IMG/VR virus record: IMGVR_UViG_3300035698_018280
Coordinates: 62,001-126,000 of that record
Source: a virus
DNA: 64,000 nt
Strand: one strand, 5' to 3'
In this document: one piece after another, positions 5,106 to 23,100 of the stretch
Layout: each line of letters starts with the position of its first letter
How positions within the stretch are numbered: position 1 is the stretch's first letter
Program-made: the position numbers and the translations under genes
Notes under the pieces: generated by a model
Seen by the model: only the letters and a program-made list of their open reading frames with translations
Database searches by the model: none
What the model was told of the DNA's origin: nothing

Positions 5106-5550
5106 CCTCGTCCTTATCCTTATCTAAATTTTTCAGCCTCTTAATCTCTTCATCGTCTATTCCGATGACTCGCAAAAAATCTTCATGAGAATTACAGGAA
5201 GCAAGATATTTTTTGAAGCGTTCAAACTCTTTGTTCGATATTTTGCTCTTTGATACCTTGTTCCTAGCAGCCTTACGAGCCTCAACAAAGGTATCTAGCA
5301 TATTTTGCAGCATATCTTGAGCCGTAAGCTCTGCGTCATCTGGATCTGCTAGCCATATCGTTCGTTTGTCGCAAGAAGGACAATGATATTCAAACATTAG
5401 AAGAACTTCGCCTTTTTGAGGAAGACGAGGTGATTCTCTGCGTTCTTTAAGACCTATAGCTTCAACGCATTTAGGATCAGTTTGTTTTTCGCAAACTGGG
5501 CATTTCCTGTCCGTAAGATATGGTAGAGCCCACCTTGGTAGAGGCATCAT
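5086..5550 (-). CDS. Zinc-ribbon-like protein
   Basis: A 154-aa protein with two CxxC knuckles: CPVC at residues 17-20 and CPSC at 57-60. The spacing is typical of a treble-clef or zinc-ribbon fold binding one zinc ion. A charged helical tail follows (about 85-154) and ends in a Lys/Asp-rich run. I place the start at the ATG at 5550 (MMPLPRW), which has AAAGGAG seven bases upstream at 5558-5564; a longer frame to 5583 lacks such a site. The gene overlaps the end of the phosphoesterase gene by 74 bases. Phage proteins of this build often bind nucleic acid or RNA polymerase, but nothing here shows the target. Confidence 0.75.
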   Translation of the reverse strand: MMPLPRWALPYLTDRKCPVCEKQTDPKCVEAIGLKERRESPRLPQKGEVLLMFEYHCPSCDKRTIWLADPDDAELTAQDMLQNMLDTFVEARKAARNKVSKSKISNKEFERFKKYLASCNSHEDFLRVIGIDDEEIKRLKNLDKDKDEDGRSDK

Positions 5551-6934
5551 TTTTAGACTCCTTTGGCGAACGGTCTGCGTCAAGGTTAACGTCGTACCTA
5601 AACGTTATGCCTCTTTTATCATGTATTCCGAAAATCTTCTGCTCTGCCCTTGTTCCGGGTAGACAGTTTTTCAATGAATAGACATCTGAGCCTACAAAAG
5701 AACCATTCATAAGACATTTACCATTGCTGCTAGTGATTTCAGATGCGTTATGAAAGTGGCCAGCCAATGTGTAGTGAGCATGATCATTGACGAAGCCAGC
5801 CATTTTTCGTTCAATTTCCAAGAATGAAGCAATAGGAGGGTTCTTGCCTTTGGCGTCATCTCCATGCATCATCAGGAACTTATGATTTCTGATTTCTGCC
5901 ATATGCCACCATGATTTAGGAACATGGAACTTGATACGAGGATTGTTACGAAATTCTTGTTCTAAGAATAAGTAAACAACTCTGTCCCAGTTGCTATAGT
6001 CTTTCTCAGCGCCGCTCTTGGCAACTCGCCCATGGTTTCCTCGAATACCATAGAACTCAATTTCTTCAAATATCGTTAGCCAATACCAGATAGCATCAGA
6101 TAACGATCTCATACCAATAATGACCTGTTCCATGATTGGCGTACCAATATAAACAGGAGACCATGCGCCAACATCGTTCATACCATCAACAACATCGCCG
6201 AGACTAAAGATGTGCAATTTAGGGATTTTGTAAAGATGCGAATGAATCTCGTAGATATCAGCAACCGCATATTTGAGATTAGAAAGTCGTTGCTCATACA
6301 TCTTGATATTATACTGAGAAATACCGCCAGTTTCTTCAAGCGAATGCTCATGGCCGATATGAAGATCACTCAACATAAGCCCCATATCTTCAGGACAGCT
6401 TTGATATTTCTCTCTCCTAGGCTTCCATTTAGACAGAGGAGCCCTGGGTAGTCTGTCTGCGGCTTCTGCGAGAGCATCCCCAATAGAGTCCGATCGCATT
6501 CTCCAACGGTCCAGAGACCTGTTGACGTTGTTCTCAGTCTTAGTCTTGAATGTATCCAACGCACGTTTATGAGCCCTGGATTTCATACTGTTTGCATATG
6601 GTTTTTGAGACCAATCTGTTTTACCATAAACATCTCGGCAAGAGTTATACGCTCTTCCAAGAGTACGGGAAATTAATGAATACGGCAAATTATCAAGACG
6701 ACTCTCGAAAAGATACTGAAGTTCATCTTCTTCCCATGGCGAGGAAGATTTTACAGGAGTCAAATCATCATTGATTTCTCCATTATTAAATGCATCCCAA
6801 TTAAACTCTTTGAATTTACATTGAACAGAATCTAAGCTACGTCCTAGGGAACGTGCGATTGTTGTCCAATCGTGATTTGCTTTGCGTTTGTCGTGCAGTG
6901 CTGCTAGTTCTTCGAGTGTCCATTTGCGAGCCAT
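5477..6934 (-). CDS. Metallophosphoesterase with two N-terminal Myb-like domains
   Basis: A 485-aa fusion. Residues about 5-46 and 67-108 are two Myb/SANT-like helix-turn-helix repeats, each with spaced Trp and a LGR turn (SLGRSLDSV; TLGRAYNSC). A basic linker follows. From about residue 183 the calcineurin-like phosphoesterase motifs appear in order: SDLH (D190, H192), GDVVD (D247), GNH (N300, H301), H357 in MMHGDD, and GHFH (H393, H395). The complete metal-ligand set predicts a two-metal phosphoesterase, probably a nuclease given the DNA-binding repeats. The ATG at 6934 has GGGAG five bases upstream. Its first 98 bases overlap the end of the GT2 gene in another frame. The substrate is unknown; DNA repair, packaging or host DNA cleavage are all possible. 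Confidence 0.85.
   Translation of the reverse strand: MARKWTLEELAALHDKRKANHDWTTIARSLGRSLDSVQCKFKEFNWDAFNNGEINDDLTPVKSSSPWEEDELQYLFESRLDNLPYSLISRTLGRAYNSCRDVYGKTDWSQKPYANSMKSRAHKRALDTFKTKTENNVNRSLDRWRMRSDSIGDALAEAADRLPRAPLSKWKPRREKYQSCPEDMGLMLSDLHIGHEHSLEETGGISQYNIKMYEQRLSNLKYAVADIYEIHSHLYKIPKLHIFSLGDVVDGMNDVGAWSPVYIGTPIMEQVIIGMRSLSDAIWYWLTIFEEIEFYGIRGNHGRVAKSGAEKDYSNWDRVVYLFLEQEFRNNPRIKFHVPKSWWHMAEIRNHKFLMMHGDDAKGKNPPIASFLEIERKMAGFVNDHAHYTLAGHFHNASEITSSNGKCLMNGSFVGSDVYSLKNCLPGTRAEQKIFGIHDKRGITFRYDVNLDADRSPKESKNDASTKVGSTISYGQEMPSLRKTN
5558..5564 (-). promoter_or_regulatory. Ribosome binding site fixing the zinc-ribbon start
   Basis: AAAGGAG lies seven bases before the ATG at 5550, inside the phosphoesterase coding sequence. 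It argues against the longer frame from 5583. Confidence 0.8.
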
Positions 6935-7682
6935 AATTACTCCCGAGCCTTTGTTCTTTTAGCTGAGACTTAAATTCTCGCCAAACTATCATGTGGGCTC
7001 TTATCATTTCTTCTTTGTGTTTTCCAGTCATCCCATCAGGGTTTGTTCTGTATCTAATGAGCGGTTTCTTTATATTTGCCATTTTGCGACCTGCGAGAAT
7101 AGCTCTACACCAAAGGTCCATGTCTGGAACCGTGTATATCTCAGTTCTCGTCGTATATCCGCCTAGCTCAAGAAAATCCTCTCGTAGAAACATTGTTGTC
7201 GGATCTATCATTGGATTCTGACATCGGTACAATTGACCTACGATTTGTTCATGCGATGTCTTGGGGTAGTCCATTTCGCCCAACGGCTCGCTTTCTAAAT
7301 CAATTTTTAGAGCATGTCCGCCAACACAAAATACATCAGGATTAGATTCAAGAAATTCAAACTGCTCACTCAGTCTGTATGGAAGACTAATATCGTCCCC
7401 ATCATGGATAGCAATGTACTTTCCTTTGGCCATACGAATTGCCTGGTTCCTCCGACGAGGAATCCTTATGTTATCACTGTCGTCTATTAGACGAACGGAA
7501 ACCCCAGCTAGACACGCAAAATCGTAATCGCACACGATATCCCAAGTCAAATCTGTAGAACCATCATTCATAATTAACCATTCAAAATCTCTAAATTTAT
7601 TCTGTTGACAAATAGATTCAAGAGATTCTTTTATATACTTTTCACAATTGTAAACAGGTGTAATTATGCTAACTGATGGCAC
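6837..7682 (-). CDS. Family 2 glycosyltransferase
   Basis: A 281-aa GT-A fold glycosyltransferase predicted to transfer a sugar from a nucleotide donor. It begins MPSVSIITPVYNCEKY, with the nucleotide-binding NDGSTD at residues 39-44 and the metal-binding DGDD at 94-97. The probable acceptor/base region includes PDMDLWCRA. I place the start at the GTG at 7682, with AAAGGAG seven bases upstream (7690-7696), rather than 13 codons earlier; the conserved fold begins exactly there. The last 33 residues are basic and Ser/Thr/Arg-rich and are encoded over the start of the Myb-phosphoesterase gene. It overlaps the sulfotransferase gene by 14 bases. The product could decorate virion proteins, DNA or host surface glycans; position beside adhesin genes favours virion glycans. 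Confidence 0.88.
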   Translation of the reverse strand: MPSVSIITPVYNCEKYIKESLESICQQNKFRDFEWLIMNDGSTDLTWDIVCDYDFACLAGVSVRLIDDSDNIRIPRRRNQAIRMAKGKYIAIHDGDDISLPYRLSEQFEFLESNPDVFCVGGHALKIDLESEPLGEMDYPKTSHEQIVGQLYRCQNPMIDPTTMFLREDFLELGGYTTRTEIYTVPDMDLWCRAILAGRKMANIKKPLIRYRTNPDGMTGKHKEEMIRAHMIVWREFKSQLKEQRLGSNYGSQMDTRRTSSTARQTQSKSRLDNNRTFPRT

Positions 7683-8424
7683 TGCAATTCTCCTTTGCCC
7701 AGTTATATAGCTCAATATCATATCTATTAAAATCTTCTAATAAATCATTGACTTTTTTACTGTAATCTTCTGGATTGCGAGATAAATGACTTTTAGTGAT
7801 GCCGCAAAAATAATCTGAATCAGGAATTCTAACTTTATCACCGAACTTTTCACCTACAGTAATTTCTCCAAAATCATCAAGCGAATCCGTATATCCTATC
7901 TTTATGTTTTGAAGATTGATTTTAGCCCTTTCATAAGCTTCATCCATTGGATATCCTTCTCTCCAACACCCTGCGCCGAATGGCTCTCTTATAGCTTTAT
8001 TCTCCATGAAATCATTAACATAAATATCTGGAAGAACACCGCTAAGTTGTCTTGTTAGAAAATTGAAGTTCTTATTTAATTCTCTATAGCGATCAAGCTG
8101 TTTTATAATAGATTCTTCGCTACAGGATTCTTTGGTCTTAAAATATCTTTTGTTATAGAATGCTAAAATAGATAGCATTCGTATTTTAGGTTCCCTCAAA
8201 ATTGTGTAATATGAAGCATCTAAGCCAAAACATTCGTGAAATCCATACGGAAGATGACCATGTATCCAACAATCATCAACAACATCTAAAGGCATACCTT
8301 TTGCTTTTCTCCATGCATATTTACGAAAAGTAACCGGAACTAATGTCTTGTTATGATCCAGTAACAGATTTATAAACGAATGACCACCTGTCTTCGGTAT
8401 ATGTAGGAATATATTAACTTTCAT
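7669..8424 (-). CDS. Sulfotransferase, heparan-sulfate 2-O-type (Sulfotransfer_2-like)
   Basis: Predicted to move a sulfuryl group from PAPS to a sugar hydroxyl. The 5'-phosphosulfate loop HIPKTGGHS lies at residues 8-16. IHGH (H55, H57) matches the catalytic His pair of heparan/uronosyl 2-O-sulfotransferases. LREPKIRMLS (about 74-83) matches the 3'-phosphate-binding strand-helix motif. The length of 251 aa is short for the family, so it is close to the minimal domain, with no membrane anchor. The start is uncertain: ATGs at 8424, 8433 and 8454 are in frame and none has a strong Shine-Dalgarno; I prefer 8424, at the start of the conserved fold. It lies between GT4 and GT2 genes, which implies a sulfated glycan product. 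The acceptor is unknown. Confidence 0.85.
   Translation of the reverse strand: MKVNIFLHIPKTGGHSFINLLLDHNKTLVPVTFRKYAWRKAKGMPLDVVDDCWIHGHLPYGFHECFGLDASYYTILREPKIRMLSILAFYNKRYFKTKESCSEESIIKQLDRYRELNKNFNFLTRQLSGVLPDIYVNDFMENKAIREPFGAGCWREGYPMDEAYERAKINLQNIKIGYTDSLDDFGEITVGEKFGDKVRIPDSDYFCGITKSHLSRNPEDYSKKVNDLLEDFNRYDIELYNWAKENCSAIS
7690..7696 (-). promoter_or_regulatory. Ribosome binding site fixing a GTG start (GT2)
   Basis: AAAGGAG lies seven bases before the GTG at 7682 and decides that start over the longer frame, which would begin at 7721. It lies inside the end of the sulfotransferase gene. Confidence 0.8.
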
Positions 8425-9538
8425 TATTGGCATGTTCTGCTGTGAAGACTTCATGATATTTTTTACTTATATTATTCCAGTCAAATTCCTTGAGAATCTG
8501 CTGATATCCATCTTCTGCTTTTTCTTTACGAAGTTTTTCGCTTGACAACAACTCATCTAAATGCTGAGCAAAACTCTCATGCATAACGCTGTTATACAAC
8601 CATCGACCGCCTGATTTCTTCGCCCCATTAACTATAAAGCCTCCGTCTAATTGATCCATGTTGCCAACATTCAATGAAACCCATGGCAGCTTACTCGCCA
8701 TAGCTTCAAGAGCAACAAGCGGCGCAACCTCAACCTGAGAAGGAAATGCAAAGATATCCGCATCTAAAAACGCCTGAATTGTGTCATCGCGAGGAATATC
8801 AATCAAAAGCTTACTATCAAAGCTGGCTTTCTTCAATGCTTCTTTATGGCGATGCCTCATAACATTTGCTGGTTGAAAATTAACACTGGTGCAAATAAAA
8901 ACTGCTACAAAGTCTTTGCCTCTAGCTCTAAGCTTTTTAAGAACATGCATTAGATGTTCTTGGCCTTTTCCTGGGAAGAAATTAGAAACGCACAAAATCA
9001 TTGGTTTATCAGGAATACGGTACTTCTTTCTAAATGAAAATCCCTTATCCTGAAACTCTGTCAAATCAATAGCATTAGGAATAACATTGACCTCAGCACC
9101 CATCGCTCGGCATGTCTGATAATCTAGGTAATTGTTTGAATGGGTTATTATCGAGAAGTGTTTATGATTTCTGCGAAAAACTCTACCTACATCTCCGTGG
9201 CTGCGCATAAAATTCATGCCAACCATCGCTATGCTCTTCGAGCAATTAATCTTATCGGCTCGACGAATGGTTGTCTCCCATTGCATAAATGAATCGCTAT
9301 AAACCATATAATGATCTGGTTTTAGACCATTTATCTGCCTTATATAAGCATCTGGGTCTCGATTGACAGGATGTATTTTGACGCCATTATGCTCTATAGT
9401 TTTATTGGCAAAGTGAGTCAAGACATGGCAATCCATGCCAAAATCTTTTGTCATAGATTCTGTTATCTGTTGAACTACTTTTTCCGATCCGCCTATATGA
9501 TGCGGAGCCGAATGATTAACGCCTATTACAAGTCGCAT
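8414..9538 (-). CDS. Family 4 glycosyltransferase
   Basis: A 374-aa retaining glycosyltransferase of GT-B fold. The N-terminal acceptor domain starts MRLVIGVNHSAPHHIGGSEK, with the typical glycine loop GGSE at 16-19. The C-terminal donor domain shows CVSNFFPGKGQEHL (about 185-200) and the donor-binding pair in EVAPLVALE (about 272-280, the E-x7-E motif). Both glutamates are present, so it should be active. The ATG at 9538 follows an AAGG about 10 bases upstream. It overlaps the sulfotransferase by 11 bases and follows the GT2 gene after 24 bases. The donor sugar cannot be deduced. It is probably one of the enzymes building the same glycan as its neighbours. Confidence 0.88.
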   Translation of the reverse strand: MRLVIGVNHSAPHHIGGSEKVVQQITESMTKDFGMDCHVLTHFANKTIEHNGVKIHPVNRDPDAYIRQINGLKPDHYMVYSDSFMQWETTIRRADKINCSKSIAMVGMNFMRSHGDVGRVFRRNHKHFSIITHSNNYLDYQTCRAMGAEVNVIPNAIDLTEFQDKGFSFRKKYRIPDKPMILCVSNFFPGKGQEHLMHVLKKLRARGKDFVAVFICTSVNFQPANVMRHRHKEALKKASFDSKLLIDIPRDDTIQAFLDADIFAFPSQVEVAPLVALEAMASKLPWVSLNVGNMDQLDGGFIVNGAKKSGGRWLYNSVMHESFAQHLDELLSSEKLRKEKAEDGYQQILKEFDWNNISKKYHEVFTAEHANNES

Positions 9539-9562
9539 ATGTTCTTCGCCTTTTCAAATCTT

Positions 9563-10300
9563 TTATTGCAAGACGGGTACAGGATGCTGCCTCATTGGTC
9601 GAACCTTTTTACCTCGCCACTTCTCAAGAAACTTCGTTCTACTACGCTTAAACAATTCGAGACGACGAGGATTTTTTCCTAAAGTCTGATGCGGCAAATG
9701 AATAACTCTCGCTTTATAATTCCAACATAATTTATAGCCAGCATCCATCGCTCTGAAACAAAAATCAGGATCTTCATAGTAACAAGGATTAAATCGTTTA
9801 TCAAACATCCCTAGCTTGATAGGGATTTCGCCCTTCATCAACATGCCTCCACATCCGACATATGTCCAGGGTTCATTGGGCCTCTTACATTGGTGAACCG
9901 GAATAAAATCATTACTCATTAACCAGGCTTCTACTCCTACAACATCTGCATTTGATTGTTCTAGAACATCATGATGGTGCTGAAGCCAGTCAGATTGTAC
10001 ATACTGATCATTATCTAAAAAGTTAATATATTCAGGCCTATCAGCTAGAGATTGATAAATATTAAAACCATGATTTCGACCGCCTATAACTCCTAAATTA
10101 TTGTCATTGCAGGCTAAAGTAATATCGTCTCGCTCAGAAGCAAGATCACCGAGATATTCAACGGAACCATCTGTGGAACCATTATCAATCATAATAACAT
10201 GAAAATTTTCTGTATGGGCAAAAAGATGAGTGAAGAACTTTTTTGTTACTTCAAGCCCATTATAGTTCAGTACAACGATAGCGGTTTTGGGATGGCTCAT
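9563..10300 (-). CDS. Family 2 glycosyltransferase, rhamnosyltransferase-like
   Basis: A 245-aa GT-A fold enzyme. The start MSHPKTAIVVLNYNG is the typical first strand of WbbL-like rhamnosyl- and related transferases. DNGSTDGS (39-46), the metal-binding DND (96-98) and YYEDPDFCFRA (174-184, holding the likely catalytic Asp/Glu) are all present. It ends in a basic tail with WRGKKVRPMRQHP. AGGA lies close before the ATG at 10300. It is the first gene after the 9.8-kb adhesin gene, only 14 bases away, and opens the glycan-modification group. The rhamnose donor is suggested only by family resemblance. Confidence 0.88.
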   Translation of the reverse strand: MSHPKTAIVVLNYNGLEVTKKFFTHLFAHTENFHVIMIDNGSTDGSVEYLGDLASERDDITLACNDNNLGVIGGRNHGFNIYQSLADRPEYINFLDNDQYVQSDWLQHHHDVLEQSNADVVGVEAWLMSNDFIPVHQCKRPNEPWTYVGCGGMLMKGEIPIKLGMFDKRFNPCYYEDPDFCFRAMDAGYKLCWNYKARVIHLPHQTLGKNPRRLELFKRSRTKFLEKWRGKKVRPMRQHPVPVLQ

Positions 10301-10314
10301 ATCATCCTATCGTC

Positions 10315-13300
10315 TTATTGGACTGTTGCGGTATTACTTCTTACAGTTATCCCAACTGAAACGCCATCAAACGGTATAACTTCCGCATACCATAGATCGC
10401 CGCTAGCAGTCAATAAATTAGAAACAAGCGACTGATTTGCTACCGAAGCAACTTCTTCAAATAAATCTGCGCCTGATGATTTACGGAACCAACGAATTGA
10501 ACTTTCGTCAGATTGTTCGGTATTTCCCGTGTCAATGTCTTGATCAAAGAACGACCATACAACCGTTAGGTTAGAATTTGAAGTTGGATTTTCAGGTTCA
10601 ACAATAACATTAGTAACAACCGGAGGAGCATTTTGAACAGTAACTACAGGACTCGTTACTGGATCTCCAATAGTGTTACCAGTTGCAGGTCGAACTTCAA
10701 CCTGAATATCATTTCCAATGATTAGAGCAACTACGCTAGTTGATGTTTGTAATTCACCTGGTATAAGTTCATTGTTGTTGAATCCGTTTGTGTTTCCATT
10801 TAGGTTTCCTCGCTTAAACTCAACGCCATTGATATACCAAATGATAGTAGAAACATCTTCTCCTCCATCATCAAAGAAATCGAAATCAGCGAAAGCTATT
10901 GTAGCTGTTGTAACTTCAGTTTGAACTACGCCGCTCGAAGTTCTTCCATTGACAAGAAGAGTTGTAATGAACGGAGGAGCGGCCTCAACTGTAACGGATG
11001 AAGAACGAACAAGAGTTCCAAGAACTTTACCATCGCTCGGTTTAACCGTAAAGTAAATGATGTCACCAACATTCAACAAACTTTCATTTCGTTCACGAGC
11101 AAATTGCTCAGCAGTTGTGCTAGAAGGAACATCCTCTGGCTGAAAACTAAAGCCAAAGGTCCATAGGGGGTCTGCGAAATTAGTAATATCATTCCATTCT
11201 CGTAATCCTCTTAAAAACTCTATTTCAACTCCATTGACATACCATCGTATATCTGTTTTATCAAGATCTTCTATATCTAGATTGAGATCAAAGAACCTAT
11301 AACTTGCAGAAATCTTGTTATAGATAGTCGGAATAGTCGGGAATATTTTAAGATCCAATGCTTCTGGTGGCCGCTCGGCCAATGGCGGCGGCAAGAAAAC
11401 GTTGCTGTTAAAGAAGTAACCAACGCCCTCAATAGCAATAGGATCTGTAGCAAACTTGTTCGTTATTTTTAGACCTATTCTTAATTTTCCAGCATTCTCA
11501 ACGTCTATTATAAACGAGTCAACCTGTTTTGTTTTGAAGACAATCAGTCCATTGCGAGGATAAGATTTGTAATCAGTTTCCTCAATGATGGTCTTATCAG
11601 TTTTCTTAACAACAACTCTGGAAGTTGGGTTCCAGCGTCCATACTTAGCCGAGAAAACAAAGCCATCAATGTTCTCCAGCGGCTCATTGAGAGCATCGTC
11701 AGTTTGTTGTGTTCGAATAGGCAGGTATATCTTTCCATACCTGTCAGCGGCGGGTTGAGATCCGCTCTGGTAGTCATCCCAATTATAAGAATCGCTTGTT
11801 GCTGCTCCTACTTCAATAAAGCTATTAGGTGGAGTATTCGCTCTGATAGCGACAGCGATCTGTTGAGCGCTGAACTCCGGAGTATCACAATCAATATAAA
11901 CAAAACTGTCCTTTGGAACGCTATAGTTGATATTTATATCTGTCAGCGCAGGGATACCTGGCGTAGCAACATCTTCATACACTTCTTCAACGGAAGCGCT
12001 AAGACCGCTCAAGATAGTTGCTCGGAATCTAAAGTAGCGACCGTTAAGTCTGAAGAACTCGACTTCTGCATCAGGATTGAATTTATCACTAAATTCCCCG
12101 AAGTTAAAACCATCATCGCTTGCTGAGACTTGCCAGTTACCGTCTGTGTTATCAAATAAATCGTAATCAAGAGAGATGCTATGAACAACAGCGTTTACGC
12201 CAAGGTCAATAGTCCTTTCATAAACTCCGTAGCCAATAGAACCAGCAACTCTTCCTAACGTATTATTTAGAATTTCATCAAGGAAAGCAGCATCAAGAAC
12301 AGTCTGCGATTGACCGCCTGTAGTCCTTGCTATTTCTTCAAGCGAGTCTGTATCTGTACGAGAAACAAGCGCTGATAATGTAACTGGGAATACGATCGAG
12401 AAGTTATTGATAACAACTGGCGTCTGCCCAAAACCATCAATAGCCTGAATATCTTCAATCGCTTCGGCCTGAGTAGCAAACGATAGATTTTCTTCATTGT
12501 CAGTATGCGAGTAGATTGTTTTCGCTCGACCATCTGCATTATCATTAAGCAGATCTTCTGTTATTTCAGTTAATCCATCAAAATACGGAGACGCTCCAAA
12601 AGGTATAGCATTATCTAAGCGAGCAATGACGTTAAGAGCTTCTGACGCTGTTCCTACATTACCGCTTAGGTGGCGAACTATTTGAGGAATCCATTCAATG
12701 TCCGAAAAATATTGAATAGATGGGCTCTGAAGCTGAGACGTTTGTGAAGGGTTGATATTGAATATCAAGCTACTGTCATCCAGCCCGTCATCAATAGGTT
12801 GATCTGGATTGCTGCTGCTGTCATCATCGCCAGGATCGTCATCATCGCCTGGAAGATCCTTGCTAGCAGAATATTCTCGGCAACCTTCAAACTCGACGAT
12901 ATCGACACCGCCCCCATCATCTCCGCTATCGCCATCGTCTCCCGTATCCCCGTCATCATCGTCGCCATCGTCGCCCGTATCGTCGTCTGGATCTTCAACT
13001 ATATCAGGATCTTCATTGTCCTCAATATCAACTACGGTCTGTCCGTAGAAAAAATCATCAACAACAGTAATCTGAATTCTAATCTTATATGGCCTACGAG
13101 TTGTCCCTTCCTTGATAAGTAAGATATCATCCTGCCCGCCCTGTCCTTCGCCTGTAACTGTTTCTGAAATTCCAAGCTTGTTTTTAATATCATCAATCTT
13201 TCGAAGAATATCATCAGCCCTTGGCAACATTGTTGTTGTACCAAATCCGCTCGATATTTCAAAATCATTACTACTAAATACAACAGGGTAAACAAACGCT

Positions 13301-16300
13301 TGTCGGGAAATAGTATCAGATGCCGACTGCTGTCCCTGGTCGCTGCCGCTAGAAGATTCCTCTGAACCTTCGTCTGTGTTATCTTCGTTACCTGGAAACA
13401 GCAAAAATCCTCGAACTAAAATCCTGATGTCCTTCGGAGGAATTTCGCCAGCATCATCTTTGAGTTCAATGTCTATTGCAACAGACTGACGGCCATCGAG
13501 CCTAGCATTAGCTGGCTCTGCCTTAGCGAGGATCTGAAGGAATCCAGGAGGACGACCGCTTGTTATTCCGCCAGCTACATAGATGAACTGATCGCCGTCT
13601 GACGCAATCCCAAACGATTGTCGTCCAACCGGGTTCTCTGTTAGATTTTGTAAAGATAGTCTAGGGACTGTTCCGCTTTCACCAATAAGTTCAAATCTTC
13701 TTAATGTAGGTGATTTTTTATTAGCGCCTCCGAGGAAGTAAACTCCTTCATATGCTCCAGTTTCAATAGCTGCTGTGCCGCCCTTGTATCTAGGATGAGG
13801 AATATCTCCAAACGAATTATCGTGAACCGTAATAGAGTTTGGATGTAACGGATCAAAAGAAACCGTATCTGTAGGGAATTCAAGTTCCTGATTCTCCCCT
13901 GATCCAATCAATATGGCTCCGCCAAGAATAACTATCGACGGCGTAGATACTGCAAAGTCATCAATAAAAACAAACGGAGATATACGATGATACAATTCAT
14001 AGTCCTGATCAACAAACGAATCGGAATACGTCCAGCTATCTGTCATAATATCATATATCAAAATACGATCATTGAAAAATCTAATTCCTCCCTGACTATC
14101 GATTTCAGTTAAACCTCCGACAATATAAATAGAATCTCCATACTTGACAGCAGAGCTAAGAGCGGTTCCATATTCTGTGCCCGAAATCTCTGGCATTGAA
14201 GAACCGACAGTCCATGTATCAGTAAAGACATCGTAAATTTCTAACTTATTAGAAACATGTAGATCTCCATTTTCTGAAGACAAACCTCCAAAGACATATA
14301 TCTTGCCAGCATCTTCAACAGCTACATGATGCATACGAGGATTTGGAATTGGGGCAAACTCGGTCCATTCATCTGTATCAATAAGATACTGTTCATTACG
14401 TCCAGAGATGCTAGTCCCATTAACCCCTCCGATCGCATATGTAGCATAGCCATAAGGCGTTATTGTATAACTGAGAGAAAGGGCTCCTCTCGGGAAGTTC
14501 ATAGCAGCCTTGTCTTCCCAAGCATCAGTTGATGCATCATAAATGCTCATCTTTGCATCAAAGACGTTATTTACAATTCCTTTTTCATCCGTATCATCGT
14601 CGTCAGTATCTTGATCCTGCTGCTCGGAATCATAAACAATAGTCAAACAAGTGGTCATATTTCGTTCAACATCGCCCCTCTTATCATATTGAGTTTTTGC
14701 TTGAACCTGTGCACTAAAGCTTTCAACAGGGTTCAATGGCAATATAGTAAAGGACGCATAGGATTTGACACCTCCGCCAAGAAACTCATCCTCCTGTTGG
14801 AATGTAAAGACAACTGATTCAGTGACTACAACCTTAGATGGATTTTCTCCTGCGATAGTTAAGAAGACAGGAGTTCCGTTTGGAACTGGCTTGCCAGAAA
14901 ATGAAACCTCAAGAATAAACGTATGTCGAGATTGTCCATCAACTAGCAAATCTTCTATAGGCTCATTATCTCTACGAACATCAACAATGCGGATTTTGAG
15001 AGGTTCTTTTAATCGAAGGACTGTTGGTGGGATTCCGTTTTCGTAGCCGCCGCCGCCGTTAAGAAAGCGAGTCTCTCCATCAAGAATAACTGTTGTTCTT
15101 CCTATTATCGATCTATCAAAAGGTTCTTCTTTCAATCCTCCAGGAAGTTCTATTGCAGAACAAATATTACTTAATGAACCGGGTGAATCGGTATTATCGT
15201 TCTTCTGCGGCGGGCCAATAAATCTATTTATTCTTAGATAGACATCAGTTGTATCATTCTCTTCTGATAATGGAAGAGATACGAACGCAGTCTCTTTATT
15301 AGCATCTAAGAAAACGAATTCATCAAGATAAGGATCTAATTCAATTGAAAGATCTTCTCCATAAAGTATTTCAAACGCATCGCCTGTTTCTATTTCAATA
15401 AGCTGTCCAAAGTTCAAAATAAACAACGTTCCGCTAAATGCGCTCGCGCACGATCTAAACTCAGTTGAAAATGGAATCGATGCAGTATTGGGGTCTCTAG
15501 CAATCTTTAGATTTTCAAAATCATATCCATCGGCCCACATTTCATTAATGAGACGACGAAAACTCATATGGAAACGAGAGCCAAAACTGCCAGGAACAGC
15601 CTGCGGATACAGAGTTAAAGGCCTTTCCTCAAAAGCATTCAATCCGTCATAAGTTATAGATGCTTTGAGAGCATACATTTCAGGGACGAGAGCAGGACCA
15701 CCTCTTTCTGGTCCCAAATCAACAACTGTCCATGTAACCCCGCAAGCAGGACCAAAGAAAATCTTTCGGGCAGTATTATTTCGAATGAATGAAAATACTC
15801 CTGATGCAATCGGTACATTATCAAGAGAATAAAATGGTCTATCTCGACCACCAAGACCTTTCTGCAGGTTCCATTTACAAATCTCATTATCAGGAATACG
15901 AGTTTTACGAGGATTTCTTGAATCAGGACTATCTGGATCGATCAAGTAACAATGAGCAAATTCCTCAACAATATCAATACAGTCTGGATCGGGGGCGCTA
16001 ACAGTAAGCTCGACTCGCAAGATATTTTCGAATGCTATGTAAAGGCTTTTACGACCAACAAATCCGTTGAATGTAGCTTGAGCAAACAGCATAACTCCCT
16101 GCGGCCTATTGGGAGCCAACAATGGTATATCTGCAAAACTAATCTCTGTAAGATTACCTTCCCCGTCGTCCTCAAGCCCAAGACTCAGGTCCAAAGTTGT
16201 TGACGGAGGAAGAACTTCACGGCTCTTACGGTCAGAGAATCCTGGATCAAATGGTACTGGCGGATCAGCATCAGGATCATCGCAAATTGGATCTGAAGCC

Positions 16301-19300
16301 TCATGAACAGCAACAAAAGCTCGACCGCCAATTCTTACTGGCTCATCTCTGTACTGTACTTTTATTCTAGCTACAAACGGAGTTGTTTTACGAATATATG
16401 TTCCATCAAAGTCTTTCTCGTGATTAGGATTAAATCCGGTGCCGCCAGAAGCAATAAAATCAACATCAAACAATGGAACTTCTTGCTTACAAAGATGAGT
16501 AATACGATCTCTACCAAAGTTGATAAGTTCCATCTTAAACGGATTTTTCATCGTTATAGAAATAGGTAGCGATGTAAAACGAAACGCATCTTTACCTGGA
16601 TCTTCTTTATCAGGTACAGAAAAAATAATCTTGATCGAAAGAGACAATGTACTGATAGCAGATATAATATTGAAATCAGGGGCCATGCGAACAATGCCCT
16701 TAAGAATTCCGTTGCCTTGCGGAGTAGATGATAAAATAAACGTCTCTTCAGGCGTTGGTCTGAATGAAGAGCGATCAATCGTCTCGCCAAATACATCCTC
16801 TGCTAATTGAGACGAACTTGTTGATGCTATCGCCTCGAAACGAAGACGAGAATCATCTGCCAGAGGCGCTCCAAACTCATCTGTTATCTGCGCAAAAAGA
16901 GCTATTCGTTGATCGAACCATGCCTCGATGTTCTTCTGGAAGCGGATAGGCTGCTCCCATTGAAGACTAAGAGCATTCTCGTTTACCAATTCGTAGCGAA
17001 GCTTCCTTACCTCAAGAAGGGGTATACCAGTTTCATCAGCAGTCTCAAGAGGTATGCCTTGAAAATAGAATGGAATAGATTTATAGCCATACCTATCCGT
17101 AGAAACAATAGCATAAAAAGCAACAGTATTATTACTTATGTTTCGATGAACAAACTCAGTTTGACTATCTGTTCCAGAGAAAATACGTTCCGCATCGCTT
17201 GATACAATTCCATTATCATCAAAAACAGGTAATGAGTCTTCAGAGTAATATATTTCAGTCTGTGTATGCCTGTCGTCAGTGGCAGACAGGTTCCATTTAA
17301 TATAATTCTTTCTATTTCCAACTTGTTGTGTAACATTTGTTATTTGCAATAACGCCGGCGACGGAGGATCAATTGCATTAGCCCGGTCAGTGGCATTGGT
17401 TTGATCTTCAGTTGAAAAAGCTGGTATTGTTACTGACAAAACAGGAGAGTCAGCCCAGTTGCTATAGTTGCCAACCGTGTTGCGAGAAAATATTTTATAA
17501 TGGTAAACTCTGCCATGAACATAATCCTGTTGCAAACTGAAAACAAATGCGCCAGATGAAACAGTGTCATCGAATACGATAGTACCATCATTTTCATGGA
17601 ATGGTTCTAATCCATAACCATTGAATTCTCTAATTAGATCGCCGTTGTCATCGACTTCTCCAGTAAACGAGTAATCAACGCCGCCTGCAGCTTGTTTCTC
17701 AAGAATACGCACTCCGCCGCCTTCAAAATCAAAGTTATCAGGAACAGAGTAGTTTAGTAGCAATAACCTATCGCCGTTGTCATCGACTTTTTCTCGAAAA
17801 TCTTCCGGAAGAACAGCGGCAGCAGAAATGAACTCAGCAGATTTTACTTCATTATAAACAGCAACATCGGAAACTTTTCCAAATAACGATTGCGATAAAC
17901 TTCCATTATCAATCGATCCTACTTGAAACACCTTATTAGAAGTTCCATCTTCAAAAGGATTAAGATCGCCTGTCGGAACGGATGACGTTAGAACTTCTCC
18001 ATTCAGATAGAATAGAACCGTATCAGTATCGAAATCAACAGTAACAGCAATATGAATCCACTCATCATAAGGAATGGTTTCAGATGCTACTACAAGCTTT
18101 ATTGAAGGGAACTTCGTTGCTAATAAAATAGACTGACTTGAAGTAACGCTTATCCAGTATGAAACATCATTGGTAACAGTATCAAATCTGGAAAATAATG
18201 TAGATCCTCCAGCACTTTCCTGTATATAGAACCAGCCTGAAAATGTCATCTGGTTATTTACTAAATTGTTTTCATTATCATCTACGCTAAAACTATCTCT
18301 AACTGTATCAAACGTTTCGCCGCTCATTCTAGCGCCGCTACGACCGCTTGGAACATCTACAGGATTTAGCCAAATTGGATCAGAGTCATCTCCCGCCCAG
18401 GTTATATGTCTTTGATTCTGAGTAAAGTCATATGCAATTCCGCCTATTCCCTCATCAAAGTGCCAAAGACCAAGAGCATTATCTTCTACCAATGGACCGC
18501 TGCCCGTCATGATATTAGCAGTAAACTGACCTATGCCAGTTGGAATATCTCGAATTCGGGGAGTTGCTTGAACTTCAACCCCCTGGCTAAAAGTTCCATT
18601 TTCATCAAATGTGAAAACCTTATAGAATAGCTCGGTATCTTCGGCAAGATTATCATCAAAAGTTCGATCAAAAAATCCTTCTTGAACAATGTCCCCATCA
18701 ATAGCATTGGTTGGGAATCCCCCAGCTTTACGGACAATTCTAATGCCAGCATAACCGCTTTCTTGATCTGAAAAGAATGACGAAGCAACAGCGTCAGTAT
18801 CGCTTGTATCAATCGAATCATCTTCAACAACAGCAAAGAAATTAACCCTAATCGGAGTACCTTCAAATGAATAGACATTCCATTTGACATCGCCAGGATA
18901 AGTAGAGTCCACCCTATTGATCATGCGACGACTTAGTTCAAGCCTAGTGTTCTCGCTATCATTCCAAGACATCGAACCGCTCTGATCGACAAGCAAACTG
19001 ACAACTCGATCTGGAAGATTGAGTTCAACTTTTTCTTCGCCATTATCATCATTTGGAACAACGCTAGTATTTAATAATACAGGATCTCCTAATGGATCAT
19101 CAAAATCATTAACGATAAGCGTCTGCGCTTCGGAAGGAGGCGTATTTATTTTGCAATCAGCAACGTCAAAAGAATCTCGGAATGACCACGCTTGTATAGC
19201 CAAGCTGTCGTTACTAACAAGAGTCCAAAGGCCAGTATCAGGATCAAACGTAACTGTAGGAGTCAAAAAAGTAGTTGGCTCATAAGGATCAAGATCAGCT

Positions 19301-20109
19301 TTTGCCAAATCCCAGATAACATAATGGTCGTCAGTCTTCTCAGAAGAAAATAGTAAGAATCCCAAAGAAGTATCATCATCAACAGATATAGGAGATTGTC
19401 CTGGAAGAACCCCTATATCAAAATTGTACCAATCATCGATCGTAATATGATCTTTAGTATTTTTTAGATCATATATAGAAAGCTCTGTAGTCGGTAATAG
19501 ATTACTATCTAGTTCAAAAACCTTACTATGAATAGTCACATATGGAGGAGTACCGAAGCCAGGATTATTTACATCCCAACCTACAATATCAAAATCACCT
19601 CGACTTAATGCAATCGCATCTATATAAACTCCATCTCCAACATCATTACTGGCTGATATGCCAAGAACATGTTCTGCATTATCTGGTATAACAAAAGGAG
19701 AAAAAAGATCAGCATCTATCCACGCCCAAATATTGGCAGGTAAGGAAAACGAACCAGTTTCAATAATCTGGTTATCATCGAGATATATTTTTACATTTAT
19801 ATTGCTGGACGAGATATTTCTAACTCTTACCCAAATATTGATCTTGTCTGATTTTTCAGCCTTCACGGGAAATTCAATAATAGGCTGAGCTTCGCCAATC
19901 AAACTATCGGATCTCATGCACCCGGTTCCAGAGAAATCAACAACCTGATTATCGAAAACTACAGGATTAGTTCCGTGCGAAACGCTTGCGGCGTTAGCAG
20001 CATTGATCATAAGAACTTCAGAATCGTCTTCAGGCACGACAAAGAAATCTGCAGGCGATGAGCCAACAGGTCTTAAATAAGTTGATACTTTTGTTGGAAA
20101 ACCTGCCAT
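10315..20109 (-). CDS. Giant modular adhesin, 3264 aa (VWA, LamG, kelch, Ig-like)
   Basis: A very large virion or tail adhesin. Modules by rough residue: a jelly-roll sandwich (60-160); the first half of a von Willebrand A domain with MIDAS DQSGS (D375, S377, S379); an FN3-like unit (425-510); a LamG-like lectin fold (540-760); FN3-like units (770-1030); many beta-sandwiches including an invasin-like one (1040-1800); a kelch propeller (1850-2185); Asp/Gly-rich linkers (2373-2400, 2417-2430); the second VWA half with GASPYFDGL (S2507) and TDNEEN (D2537) up to about 2610; a discoidin-like unit (2620-2710); and three Ig-like repeats with IRWYVNG-type strands (2910-3264). I see no signal peptide, transmembrane or autotransporter domain, which fits a phage tail protein. 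Receptor binding is inferred from the modules. Confidence 0.85.
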   Translation of the reverse strand: MAGFPTKVSTYLRPVGSSPADFFVVPEDDSEVLMINAANAASVSHGTNPVVFDNQVVDFSGTGCMRSDSLIGEAQPIIEFPVKAEKSDKINIWVRVRNISSSNINVKIYLDDNQIIETGSFSLPANIWAWIDADLFSPFVIPDNAEHVLGISASNDVGDGVYIDAIALSRGDFDIVGWDVNNPGFGTPPYVTIHSKVFELDSNLLPTTELSIYDLKNTKDHITIDDWYNFDIGVLPGQSPISVDDDTSLGFLLFSSEKTDDHYVIWDLAKADLDPYEPTTFLTPTVTFDPDTGLWTLVSNDSLAIQAWSFRDSFDVADCKINTPPSEAQTLIVNDFDDPLGDPVLLNTSVVPNDDNGEEKVELNLPDRVVSLLVDQSGSMSWNDSENTRLELSRRMINRVDSTYPGDVKWNVYSFEGTPIRVNFFAVVEDDSIDTSDTDAVASSFFSDQESGYAGIRIVRKAGGFPTNAIDGDIVQEGFFDRTFDDNLAEDTELFYKVFTFDENGTFSQGVEVQATPRIRDIPTGIGQFTANIMTGSGPLVEDNALGLWHFDEGIGGIAYDFTQNQRHITWAGDDSDPIWLNPVDVPSGRSGARMSGETFDTVRDSFSVDDNENNLVNNQMTFSGWFYIQESAGGSTLFSRFDTVTNDVSYWISVTSSQSILLATKFPSIKLVVASETIPYDEWIHIAVTVDFDTDTVLFYLNGEVLTSSVPTGDLNPFEDGTSNKVFQVGSIDNGSLSQSLFGKVSDVAVYNEVKSAEFISAAAVLPEDFREKVDDNGDRLLLLNYSVPDNFDFEGGGVRILEKQAAGGVDYSFTGEVDDNGDLIREFNGYGLEPFHENDGTIVFDDTVSSGAFVFSLQQDYVHGRVYHYKIFSRNTVGNYSNWADSPVLSVTIPAFSTEDQTNATDRANAIDPPSPALLQITNVTQQVGNRKNYIKWNLSATDDRHTQTEIYYSEDSLPVFDDNGIVSSDAERIFSGTDSQTEFVHRNISNNTVAFYAIVSTDRYGYKSIPFYFQGIPLETADETGIPLLEVRKLRYELVNENALSLQWEQPIRFQKNIEAWFDQRIALFAQITDEFGAPLADDSRLRFEAIASTSSSQLAEDVFGETIDRSSFRPTPEETFILSSTPQGNGILKGIVRMAPDFNIISAISTLSLSIKIIFSVPDKEDPGKDAFRFTSLPISITMKNPFKMELINFGRDRITHLCKQEVPLFDVDFIASGGTGFNPNHEKDFDGTYIRKTTPFVARIKVQYRDEPVRIGGRAFVAVHEASDPICDDPDADPPVPFDPGFSDRKSREVLPPSTTLDLSLGLEDDGEGNLTEISFADIPLLAPNRPQGVMLFAQATFNGFVGRKSLYIAFENILRVELTVSAPDPDCIDIVEEFAHCYLIDPDSPDSRNPRKTRIPDNEICKWNLQKGLGGRDRPFYSLDNVPIASGVFSFIRNNTARKIFFGPACGVTWTVVDLGPERGGPALVPEMYALKASITYDGLNAFEERPLTLYPQAVPGSFGSRFHMSFRRLINEMWADGYDFENLKIARDPNTASIPFSTEFRSCASAFSGTLFILNFGQLIEIETGDAFEILYGEDLSIELDPYLDEFVFLDANKETAFVSLPLSEENDTTDVYLRINRFIGPPQKNDNTDSPGSLSNICSAIELPGGLKEEPFDRSIIGRTTVILDGETRFLNGGGGYENGIPPTVLRLKEPLKIRIVDVRRDNEPIEDLLVDGQSRHTFILEVSFSGKPVPNGTPVFLTIAGENPSKVVVTESVVFTFQQEDEFLGGGVKSYASFTILPLNPVESFSAQVQAKTQYDKRGDVERNMTTCLTIVYDSEQQDQDTDDDDTDEKGIVNNVFDAKMSIYDASTDAWEDKAAMNFPRGALSLSYTITPYGYATYAIGGVNGTSISGRNEQYLIDTDEWTEFAPIPNPRMHHVAVEDAGKIYVFGGLSSENGDLHVSNKLEIYDVFTDTWTVGSSMPEISGTEYGTALSSAVKYGDSIYIVGGLTEIDSQGGIRFFNDRILIYDIMTDSWTYSDSFVDQDYELYHRISPFVFIDDFAVSTPSIVILGGAILIGSGENQELEFPTDTVSFDPLHPNSITVHDNSFGDIPHPRYKGGTAAIETGAYEGVYFLGGANKKSPTLRRFELIGESGTVPRLSLQNLTENPVGRQSFGIASDGDQFIYVAGGITSGRPPGFLQILAKAEPANARLDGRQSVAIDIELKDDAGEIPPKDIRILVRGFLLFPGNEDNTDEGSEESSSGSDQGQQSASDTISRQAFVYPVVFSSNDFEISSGFGTTTMLPRADDILRKIDDIKNKLGISETVTGEGQGGQDDILLIKEGTTRRPYKIRIQITVVDDFFYGQTVVDIEDNEDPDIVEDPDDDTGDDGDDDDGDTGDDGDSGDDGGGVDIVEFEGCREYSASKDLPGDDDDPGDDDSSSNPDQPIDDGLDDSSLIFNINPSQTSQLQSPSIQYFSDIEWIPQIVRHLSGNVGTASEALNVIARLDNAIPFGASPYFDGLTEITEDLLNDNADGRAKTIYSHTDNEENLSFATQAEAIEDIQAIDGFGQTPVVINNFSIVFPVTLSALVSRTDTDSLEEIARTTGGQSQTVLDAAFLDEILNNTLGRVAGSIGYGVYERTIDLGVNAVVHSISLDYDLFDNTDGNWQVSASDDGFNFGEFSDKFNPDAEVEFFRLNGRYFRFRATILSGLSASVEEVYEDVATPGIPALTDININYSVPKDSFVYIDCDTPEFSAQQIAVAIRANTPPNSFIEVGAATSDSYNWDDYQSGSQPAADRYGKIYLPIRTQQTDDALNEPLENIDGFVFSAKYGRWNPTSRVVVKKTDKTIIEETDYKSYPRNGLIVFKTKQVDSFIIDVENAGKLRIGLKITNKFATDPIAIEGVGYFFNSNVFLPPPLAERPPEALDLKIFPTIPTIYNKISASYRFFDLNLDIEDLDKTDIRWYVNGVEIEFLRGLREWNDITNFADPLWTFGFSFQPEDVPSSTTAEQFARERNESLLNVGDIIYFTVKPSDGKVLGTLVRSSSVTVEAAPPFITTLLVNGRTSSGVVQTEVTTATIAFADFDFFDDGGEDVSTIIWYINGVEFKRGNLNGNTNGFNNNELIPGELQTSTSVVALIIGNDIQVEVRPATGNTIGDPVTSPVVTVQNAPPVVTNVIVEPENPTSNSNLTVVWSFFDQDIDTGNTEQSDESSIRWFRKSSGADLFEEVASVANQSLVSNLLTASGDLWYAEVIPFDGVSVGITVRSNTATVQ

Positions 20110-20110
20110 A

Positions 20111-23100
20111 TTAAATAGTCTTACCAGTTACAAGTCTACGAATTGTACTGTCTCCTCTAATTTTGAATTCATCATAACTGAATAACCAAATATCATCATT
20201 TACAAATAAAACTTGGTGAATAGTGTCGAACTCCGTTACATCTACAATCAAAAATCCGCTATCATCCCATACTAGATATCGGCCATCTGCAAGAGTTGCT
20301 ACAGCGGTTGTGAAATTCGATGTAACGTCATTGATAATAGCGCTTCGAGAATCATCCGCATCGCCTAAGAAATTTACAAGTGACGTATTGACGCTTTCGG
20401 CATAAAAATTACCGCCATCAACATACAGTCCTGCATCAGTCGCTATAAGAATTTCAGATCGATGTTTTGTAAGTTCATTAACGTTCTTACTTGATATACT
20501 TCCAATTAAAGTCCAAGTAAATCCTTCTGTAGAAAGCCAAACTTCGTTATTTGCAACCGCAAAAGCAGCATCAGGGACGATCAATGTGCTAACTGGACCA
20601 GATGTTTCAGCAACCCTTTGCCACTCGTCCTGAGTCTGGCGACGAGTATAAATGCCGTCTGAGCCTCCAATAACCAAGTTCGAGCTAAACATCACAGCAA
20701 CTCTTGATAAAATATCTGGCAATCCAAGACCTGAATCTTTTGTAACTTCTCCTGTAAGCATATCATAAACGTAAAGATTTCTTTCATCAAGAACATAGAG
20801 CTTATTAGAGAACGTATCTAGATAAAAGTCTTTGATAAAAAGTTCTCGTCGAGAATCTATTACAATCTTTGAGACTACCAATGTATCTGTGTCAATCGAG
20901 AGTACGCCTCCCTGCCCTCCGACCCAGACCTGCCCCAAATCCCCTAGATGTATAACGGCGCTCGGATACGGCAACGACAGCCCTCTGTTGCCATAATCTT
21001 GATCGAGATCAAAATCTACTGTTGAATTAAAATTATCATACCATTCCTGATTACACGCAACAAGGAATCTACCCTGATAAATCGGAGCGCACGCTTCCTG
21101 AAGGCCAGGATTAGTCTTAGCAAGATCTATCCCAAAGTTTACGATATTAGAATGATAAACCTGTGACATATGAGAAGGCATACCAGAGTTTATCCATTCA
21201 AATGAATCTTCAACAACCCAATGCGGAAAACCAGTATTCTTGAAAGCTACGTTAATAACATCTATCTCGACCCTTGTATACTTACTCAAAGGGGCAGCGA
21301 ATGAAAAAATACCATCAATAGAATTTGCAATTGCGACAACATCATAACTGCTATAATCCTCTGGAAATTTATCTCCTACCGCCCCGCCAAATCCTCCTAC
21401 AAATCTTTGTAAACCAAAGCCATCAATGGTATCTATAAGATTAGTACCTGAATTGGCTATATCAGCTTCATTTGGGCCGGTGCCAGTTGAAGGGTTGTTA
21501 ATAGATCGACCTCTCGATGCATCGTTTTCATCCTCAAACCCCACACCTCCATCATTATTTCCATCCCCGTCGCTGCCTGATCCACCGCCGCCTCCGCCTC
21601 CCTCAGCAGGAGGATCGCCAAGGTTCGGTTCAAGAAGAACAGAGTCATACCATCCGGGGGTTCCCCATACGACTATACCAAGAGAAGCAATGGTTCTAAT
21701 ATCATCTGATGTCAAAGACATATCAGCAGTTAAAATAACCCCAATTTCTGTCGTGGTGCTATCAAATTTCCATTGCAACAAACCCTGTAAATCATCTAAA
21801 TCGTCATAAGGTAGTATCCATGGAATATCGTTGATTTCAACATCTGGCAATCCATCGCTATCTAGGGGAATTCCTCCTCCTGCAATTTTTCTGCCCAACA
21901 TCCACTGGGTAAATGCTGTCCTAGTAATATGATTTCTTACTGCGATCGGTGAGGTCTGATGAAAAACAAGCATGTCGATACCTACGTCATCAAACCATGG
22001 TCCCCAGTTTCTACGAAAATATTCAGCATGAATAGGCGCTCTTATATCATATGGAACGCCTCCGTCTAAAACATCATGAATATTGATTCTGTCTAAATCT
22101 TCATTTATATAATAACCAGCATAAATTGATACAGATACTTCTGTATGACTGTCTATCCAGCCTCCCAGCTTAGTTTTGATTTCATTTCTTCTATCTTCAG
22201 ACATAGTAAACCAATGGTTAGGACTGAATATGCCTCCAACGTTACTGCCTGCAGGCAACCATAGCATAAACCTTCTAAAGCCCTGTTCATAATCAGTATT
22301 CAAACGAGATATTAGATTATTAACGCCTTCAGCAACTTTCCACCAAGATATAAGTTCGCCAGAGACTTCTCCTGTTTGAGACAGGAACTCGTCTGACCAC
22401 AAACGATAAACTCGACCAGATCGACGGTCAATATCAGAAATTATAGAAGTCTCACCTTCGCCAAACAATAGAATAGGATCTGCTATAGGATCAATAAATT
22501 CATCCTGTCGAACAGGAATTGGCTTTCTTACATCAGGATCAAATTCTATACCTGTAATAGAACTAAACGCATTTATATCAATAAGCTCTCTCAGAGTTGG
22601 TTCAATGATATCATCTAACTGATCATTGATCTGTCTATCTCTGCCTTCGTTCTCTAGCGAATCAAAAATAACATATCCAAAAGCTCCTATGCTAGCAGGA
22701 TTTCTAAGAACATGGTTCCAGTTGACATTGTTCAAAGGACGACGGTGATATGGCGCTGCACCTTCTGTCTTATAAACATGCCATATCTGTGGCATGAACT
22801 CTTTGTTATGTTTTTTTCCTAGTCTTAGATTCTCTTTGCTATTACTCGTTATCCATTCGCTATTGTCAAAAATACTATTCTCAAATCGCTCAGGCGAAGG
22901 GAATAAACTATTTCCAATTGTATATCTTTGAGAATAAAATGATGGAAGAAGTACGCCAACCTCATCCCATAACCAGTTGATAGAGTTATTGATTGACTGT
23001 CCCGTATTAAGAGATTGATCCGCATTATCAATATCGATAAGCTCCGAACGACCATATCCTAAAACACCAGGGCCTCCATTGTTGAGATTAGAATCTGCAT

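What the first reader, a model, noticed from the sequence alone, without database searches (positions are those of the whole stretch)
6837..10300. Glycosyltransferase-sulfotransferase group next to giant adhesins
Four contiguous, overlapping genes encode GT2, GT4, a 2-O-sulfotransferase-like enzyme and GT2, directly downstream of 43 kb of adhesin genes. All keep their catalytic motifs. Glycan synthesis plus sulfation encoded with the adsorption apparatus suggests a virion-borne or host-surface sulfated glycan. I know of no described phage system that combines sulfated glycan synthesis with such adhesins.
Basis: partly seen in the sequence, partly recalled or inferred. Interest (0 to 1): 0.75.

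Follow-up and report, generated by a model that had tools for sequence, protein, structure and literature searches.

The report
Giant-fibre-linked phage sugar-attaching enzyme genes
A large uncultured phage related to Bacillus phage G carries three sugar-transferring enzyme genes that travel with its giant fibre gene in every relative found, probably to put sugars on the virus particle, while the sulfate-adding gene among them is a one-off insertion seen only in this virus.

Summary
They are not one unit. A scan of IMG/VR from the first GT2 found 15 loci, and all 15 lie directly downstream of a homologue of the 3264-aa fibre protein. GT4 is beside it in 13, the second GT2 in 11, the ST in none. 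A reverse scan from the fibre protein agreed and added one more contig. The conserved unit is therefore giant fibre – GT2 – GT4 – GT2 – exonuclease. The ST is an insertion with the lowest GC of the eight genes compared; its relatives lie in sugar clusters or near a capsid gene. Further GT4 genes sit among the fibre genes (window 48721-49872) and beside the major capsid gene in 21 of 80 relatives. A ~32-kb sugar gene island lies elsewhere in the contig, and no flippase or polymerase-like membrane protein was seen. Best reading: cytoplasmic glycosylation of virion proteins, here optionally sulfated. This works like mycobacteriophage virion glycosylation, but no homology to that system was found. 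Product, acceptor and sulfation are untested.

The parts
9563..10300 (-). GT2a: family 2 (GT-A) glycosyltransferase, 245 aa, LDNDQ (DxD-type) motif
   Evidence: Pfam PF00535 E 8.7e-19; homologues next to the giant fibre gene in 15/15 IMG/VR loci; FLDNDQ invariant in 5 relatives
8414..9538 (-). GT4: family 4 (GT-B) glycosyltransferase, 374 aa, ExxxxxxxE motif (E270/E278)
   Evidence: Pfam PF00534 E 2.1e-18; conserved in place in 13/15 loci; alignment
7669..8454 (-). ST: PAPS-type carbohydrate sulfotransferase-like protein (start probably at about 8424, 251 aa); 5'-PSB HIPKTGG, GHxPYGxH, 3'-PB ILREPxxRxxS
   Evidence: Profile hit to HS 6-O-ST E 6.3e-15 and 2-O-ST 4e-6; weak Foldseek top hits all sulfotransferases (low-confidence model); absent from 15/15 homologous loci; GC 0.337 against 0.386-0.429 for the other genes compared
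6837..7721 (-). GT2b: family 2 glycosyltransferase (start probably GTG at about 7682), IHDGDD motif
   Evidence: Pfam PF00535 E 3.7e-25; conserved in place in 11/15 loci; alignment
10315..20109 (-). AdhA: 3264-aa giant fibre/adhesin protein, the constant upstream partner of GT2a
   Evidence: Homologue directly upstream of GT2a in 15/15 loci plus L139
48721..49872 (-). Fibre-embedded GT4 (383 aa, phrog_2170) between giant structural genes
   Evidence: phrog_2170 E 1.3e-35; 41-49% identical in 8 relatives, between the same structural genes in G001
5477..6934 (-). Exonuclease (metallophosphoesterase), usual downstream flank of the GT genes
   Evidence: phrog_284 exonuclease E 3.6e-44; present in 12/15 loci

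Best explanation
The GT2-GT4-GT2 trio is a conserved accessory of the giant fibre gene in a clade of large phages related to Bacillus phage G. Shown here: fixed gene order with the fibre, conserved catalytic motifs, no transmembrane segments, and parallel GT4 genes inside the fibre operon and beside the capsid gene. Inferred: the three soluble enzymes work in the cytoplasm late in infection and build a short sugar chain on the giant fibre (or a neighbouring fibre protein) before the virion is finished. GT2a, the only one of the three present in every locus, would add the first or key sugar, and GT4 and GT2b, which are sometimes lost, would extend it. Nucleotide sugars come from the host and, in this phage, from its own sugar island. 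Inferred and less sure: the inserted sulfotransferase uses host-made PAPS to sulfate that glycan, giving this phage a negatively charged variant. The glycan would shield or tune the fibre's binding.
For: All 15 loci found by scanning IMG/VR with GT2a alone have an AdhA homologue directly upstream. The reverse scan from AdhA gives the same and adds L139. The GT genes are 38-57% identical to those of G001, G016, G010 and G014 with catalytic motifs invariant. A GT4 lies among the fibre genes and is kept in 8 relatives. A capsid-type GT4 lies 1-9.5 kb from the major capsid gene in 21 of 80 relatives, despite many truncated loci. No GT in the set has a transmembrane segment, and among 136 ORFs of the contig there is no flippase or polymerase-like membrane protein (control P22 GtrC 8 segments, GtrB 2) and no PF02397 initiating transferase. 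The contig carries a sugar island with CMP-Kdo synthetase above cut-off, NeuB-like, KdsC-like and UDP-sugar dehydrogenase genes. Precedent: mycobacteriophages glycosylate capsid and tail tube proteins with their own GTs (PMC12363180).
Against: No acceptor, sugar or product is shown. Adjacency may reflect only a permissive site or late expression. The contig is a fragment (163,887 bp of a probably larger genome), so missing export genes may lie elsewhere or be the host's. No homology was found between these GTs and proteins of the Myrna structural region. Phage G itself lacks the phrog_2170-type GTs, so the system is not needed for this kind of virion. The ST occurs at this site in one genome only.
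Confidence: 0.58

Rival explanations
1. The enzymes remodel the host surface (LPS, capsule or teichoic acid) during infection to block rival phages, as proposed for the lipopolysaccharide gene clusters of cyanophages such as P-SSM2.
For: The same contig has a large sugar island with CMP-Kdo synthetase, UDP-sugar dehydrogenases and many GTs, resembling the cyanophage clusters described in PMC7824862. Soluble GTs can act on lipid-linked sugars at the inner membrane.
Against: No flippase, polymerase, GtrA/GtrC-like or undecaprenyl-phosphate sugar transferase was found. The trio and the island are uncoupled: CMP-Kdo synthetase is in only 3 of 26 records although most of those carry trio genes. The strict link to fibre and capsid genes is not expected for surface conversion.
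Confidence: 0.22
2. The GTs glycosylate phage DNA to resist restriction.
For: Phage GTs that hypermodify DNA exist (Pyle 2024, cited in PMC12619734), and the trio is followed by an exonuclease and a helicase gene.
Against: No thymidylate synthase/hydroxymethylase family gene in G000, G010, G014 or G016, which all carry the trio. The upstream partner is always the fibre gene, not nucleotide metabolism.
Confidence: 0.06
3. The sulfotransferase is an unrelated passenger inserted at a tolerant point in the late operon, acting in the sugar-island pathway or on the host and not on the trio's product.
For: Absent from 15/15 homologous loci. Lowest GC and GC3 of the eight genes compared. Its relatives lie in sugar clusters (L113, L114, L115) or near a capsid gene (L112), never beside the fibre. 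Diverse bacteria carry distant relatives.
Against: It is neatly placed between two GT genes with about 11-14 nt overlaps, which suggests translational coupling, and its active-site motifs are intact.
Confidence: 0.4

Closest known systems
Mycobacteriophage virion glycosylation (Che8, Corndog, Myrna; Freeman et al. 2023, as cited in PMC12363180)
   Same: Phage-encoded GTs modify the phage's own structural proteins; Myrna's major head protein is a distant homologue of this phage's (25.7%).
   Different: No homologue of the GTs here was found in a 40-kb structural region of Myrna. Here three or more GTs are tied to a giant fibre gene, with a separate GT4 by the capsid gene, and one genome adds a sulfotransferase.
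Cyanophage lipopolysaccharide/capsule gene clusters (P-SSM2 type; PMC7824862)
   Same: Large phage-borne sugar island with epimerase/dehydrogenase-type genes, a nucleotidyltransferase (KdsB) and many GTs, as in this contig at 3.6-36 kb.
   Different: The trio in question sits apart from the island, in the fibre operon, and is conserved in relatives in which CMP-Kdo synthetase was not found.
Phage sulfotransferases (Sulfotransfer_3, OM43 phages and Synechococcus phage S-SRM01; PMC10580990)
   Same: Sulfotransferase gene in a phage genome with unknown substrate.
   Different: This ST has no Sulfotransfer_3 match and is nearest to the heparan sulfate 6-O/2-O-sulfotransferases.
P22-type gtrABC O-antigen conversion
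   Same: Phage glycosyltransferase genes.
   Different: No membrane flippase or GtrC-type transferase; virion-gene context.

Membership tests
GT2 glycosyltransferases (GT2a, GT2b) | PF00535 domain with DxD-type motif | tested here: met
   E 8.7e-19 and 3.7e-25, above curated cut-offs; motifs invariant in relatives
GT4 glycosyltransferase | PF00534 domain with ExxxxxxxE motif | tested here: met
   E 2.1e-18; E270/E278 invariant
PAPS-dependent carbohydrate sulfotransferase (HS 2-O/6-O type) | 5'-PSB P-loop, 3'-PB motif and full-length profile similarity | tested here: met
   HIPKTGG, ILREPxxRxxS and GH motifs; profile hit to HS 6-O-ST E 6.3e-15
PAPS-dependent carbohydrate sulfotransferase (HS 2-O/6-O type) | Sulfotransferase fold in a predicted model | tested here: inconclusive
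   Model pLDDT 58.9; the four best Foldseek hits are sulfotransferases but E >= 1.6e-3
PAPS-dependent carbohydrate sulfotransferase (HS 2-O/6-O type) | Transfers sulfate from PAPS to a sugar | not testable with these tools
   Needs enzymology
Phage virion glycosylation system (mycobacteriophage type) | Homologous glycosyltransferase | tested here: inconclusive
   No match of the GT profiles to proteins of the 40-kb Myrna structural region; only that region was tested, and the Che8/Corndog GTs were not
Phage virion glycosylation system (mycobacteriophage type) | Glycan found on capsid or tail protein | not testable with these tools
   Needs mass spectrometry of virions
Gtr-type O-antigen conversion | Membrane flippase (GtrA) and membrane GT (GtrC) | tested here: not met
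   No such membrane protein among 136 ORFs of the contig; control found P22 GtrC and GtrB clearly, GtrA only weakly

The most novel reading that the evidence does not exclude
A clade of large phages carries a dedicated, multi-enzyme system that builds an oligosaccharide on its giant fibres, with other dedicated GTs for the capsid, and at least one member decorates that glycan with sulfate: a virion-borne, phage-made sulfated glycan.
Probability: 0.25. Interest if true: 0.8.

Novelty: new variant of a known kind. Interest (0 to 1): 0.52.

Why it matters
A fixed pairing of glycosyltransferase genes with a giant fibre gene across divergent large phages is a clear, testable sign that virion glycosylation extends beyond actinobacterial phages and can be protein-specific (fibre GTs, capsid GTs). 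It also narrows what to test: GT2a first, and the sulfotransferase as an optional addition.

Tried and rejected
Single-protein scans with the ST and the helicase found no close relatives in IMG/VR; tblastn of the ST in phage records found none, and the GT2a and GT4 searches gave only weak hits. The AlphaFold model of the ST was poor and is used only as weak support. The idea that the four genes form one unit was rejected. The idea that the trio depends on the sugar island was rejected on present evidence. DNA glucosylation was tested through PF00303 and not supported. A coupled phage PAPS supply was tested through APS kinase (PF01583): none in this contig, one in G014 in a context without a recognised sulfotransferase.

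Full report
Source. The window is bases 62001-126000 of a 163,887-base IMG/VR virus record, probably a fragment. Its major capsid protein matches phrog_2522 and is 54% identical to that of Bacillus phage G; 99 relatives were found in IMG/VR, on contigs up to 548 kb.

Observation. The four ORFs exist and are GT2, GT4, sulfotransferase-like and GT2. The sulfotransferase call rests on a five-member profile that matches heparan sulfate 6-O-sulfotransferase (E 6.3e-15) and 2-O-sulfotransferase (4e-6), with intact P-loop, GH and 3'-phosphate-binding motifs. The structure model is poor (pLDDT 58.9), though its four best PDB matches are sulfotransferases.

Conservation. In G001, G016, G010 and G014 the order is giant fibre - GT2 - GT4 - GT2 - exonuclease, without the ST. 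A scan that used only GT2a found 15 loci (two of them nearly identical): the fibre homologue is directly upstream in 15, GT4 is present in 13, GT2b in 11, exonuclease in 12, helicase in 14, ST in 0. The reverse scan from the fibre C-terminus gave 8 strong hits, all followed by GT2a, one of them on a new contig. The trio is therefore a fibre-linked unit and the ST is an insertion. Its GC (0.337) is the lowest of eight genes compared. Its nearest relatives lie in sugar clusters or near the capsid gene of other contigs, and distant ones in diverse bacteria.

Wider glycosylation genes. A fourth GT in the window, GT4 at 48721-49872, lies between giant structural genes and is kept in 8 relatives. 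A GT4 next to the major capsid gene is found in 21 of 80 relatives. Outside the window, at about 3.6-36 kb of the contig, is a sugar island with CMP-Kdo synthetase (above cut-off), NeuB-like, KdsC-like and PseF-like proteins, UDP-sugar dehydrogenases, a GalE-like epimerase, many GTs, methyltransferases and MptE-like proteins. CMP-Kdo synthetase was found in only 3 of 26 records, so the trio does not depend on it.

Mechanism. The GTs have no transmembrane segment. Among 136 ORFs of the contig no flippase or polymerase-like protein was seen, nor a PF02397 transferase; the same scan found P22 GtrC and GtrB. With the fibre and capsid linkage this favours cytoplasmic glycosylation of virion proteins. 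DNA glycosylation is less likely: no thymidylate synthase/hydroxymethylase family gene in four records that carry the trio. The acceptor, the sugars, the order of action and any sulfation are inferred, not shown.

Known systems. Phage glycosylation of capsid and tail proteins is described for mycobacteriophages (PMC12363180). Phage sugar clusters are described for cyanophages (PMC7824862), and core GTs of unknown role in another large-phage lineage (PMC12619734). Phage sulfotransferases are known without function (PMC10580990). No homology was found between the GTs here and the Myrna structural region. I therefore rate this a new variant of a known kind.

Noticed in passing
window 20111-23710: The N-terminal part of this 1199-aa fibre protein resembles GH56 hyaluronidase (Pfam E 1.2e-14), but the catalytic D-x-E reads D-Y-S ('IIDYSRFHP') and in G001 D-Y-R; it may be a binding domain that lost hydrolysis.
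   Followed up: partly
L004 and L003 (contig 3.6-36 kb): Sugar island with CMP-Kdo synthetase, NeuB-like, KdsC-like and PseF-like genes, several MptE-like proteins and many GTs; parts recur in G008 and G057.
   Followed up: partly
L006:6026-7453 and the loci: A GT4 (phrog_2170) lies beside the major capsid gene in 21 of 80 relatives, 1-9.5 kb away.
   Followed up: partly
L004:607-2754: A UDP-sugar dehydrogenase-like ORF runs into an intein N-terminal domain (TIGR01445), followed by a short ORF with an intein-like C-terminal motif.
   Followed up: no
L120, L121, L123, L129 (HEL homologues): The helicase downstream of the GT genes is 850-986 aa in several relatives against 510 aa in the window, suggesting intein-like insertions.
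   Followed up: no
L212:10570-11538 (G014): A related 494-kb phage encodes an APS kinase (PF01583 E 1.3e-57) in a context without a recognised sulfotransferase.
   Followed up: partly
L126, L129, L138, L139: The giant fibre AdhA is split into two consecutive ORFs in these relatives.
   Followed up: no
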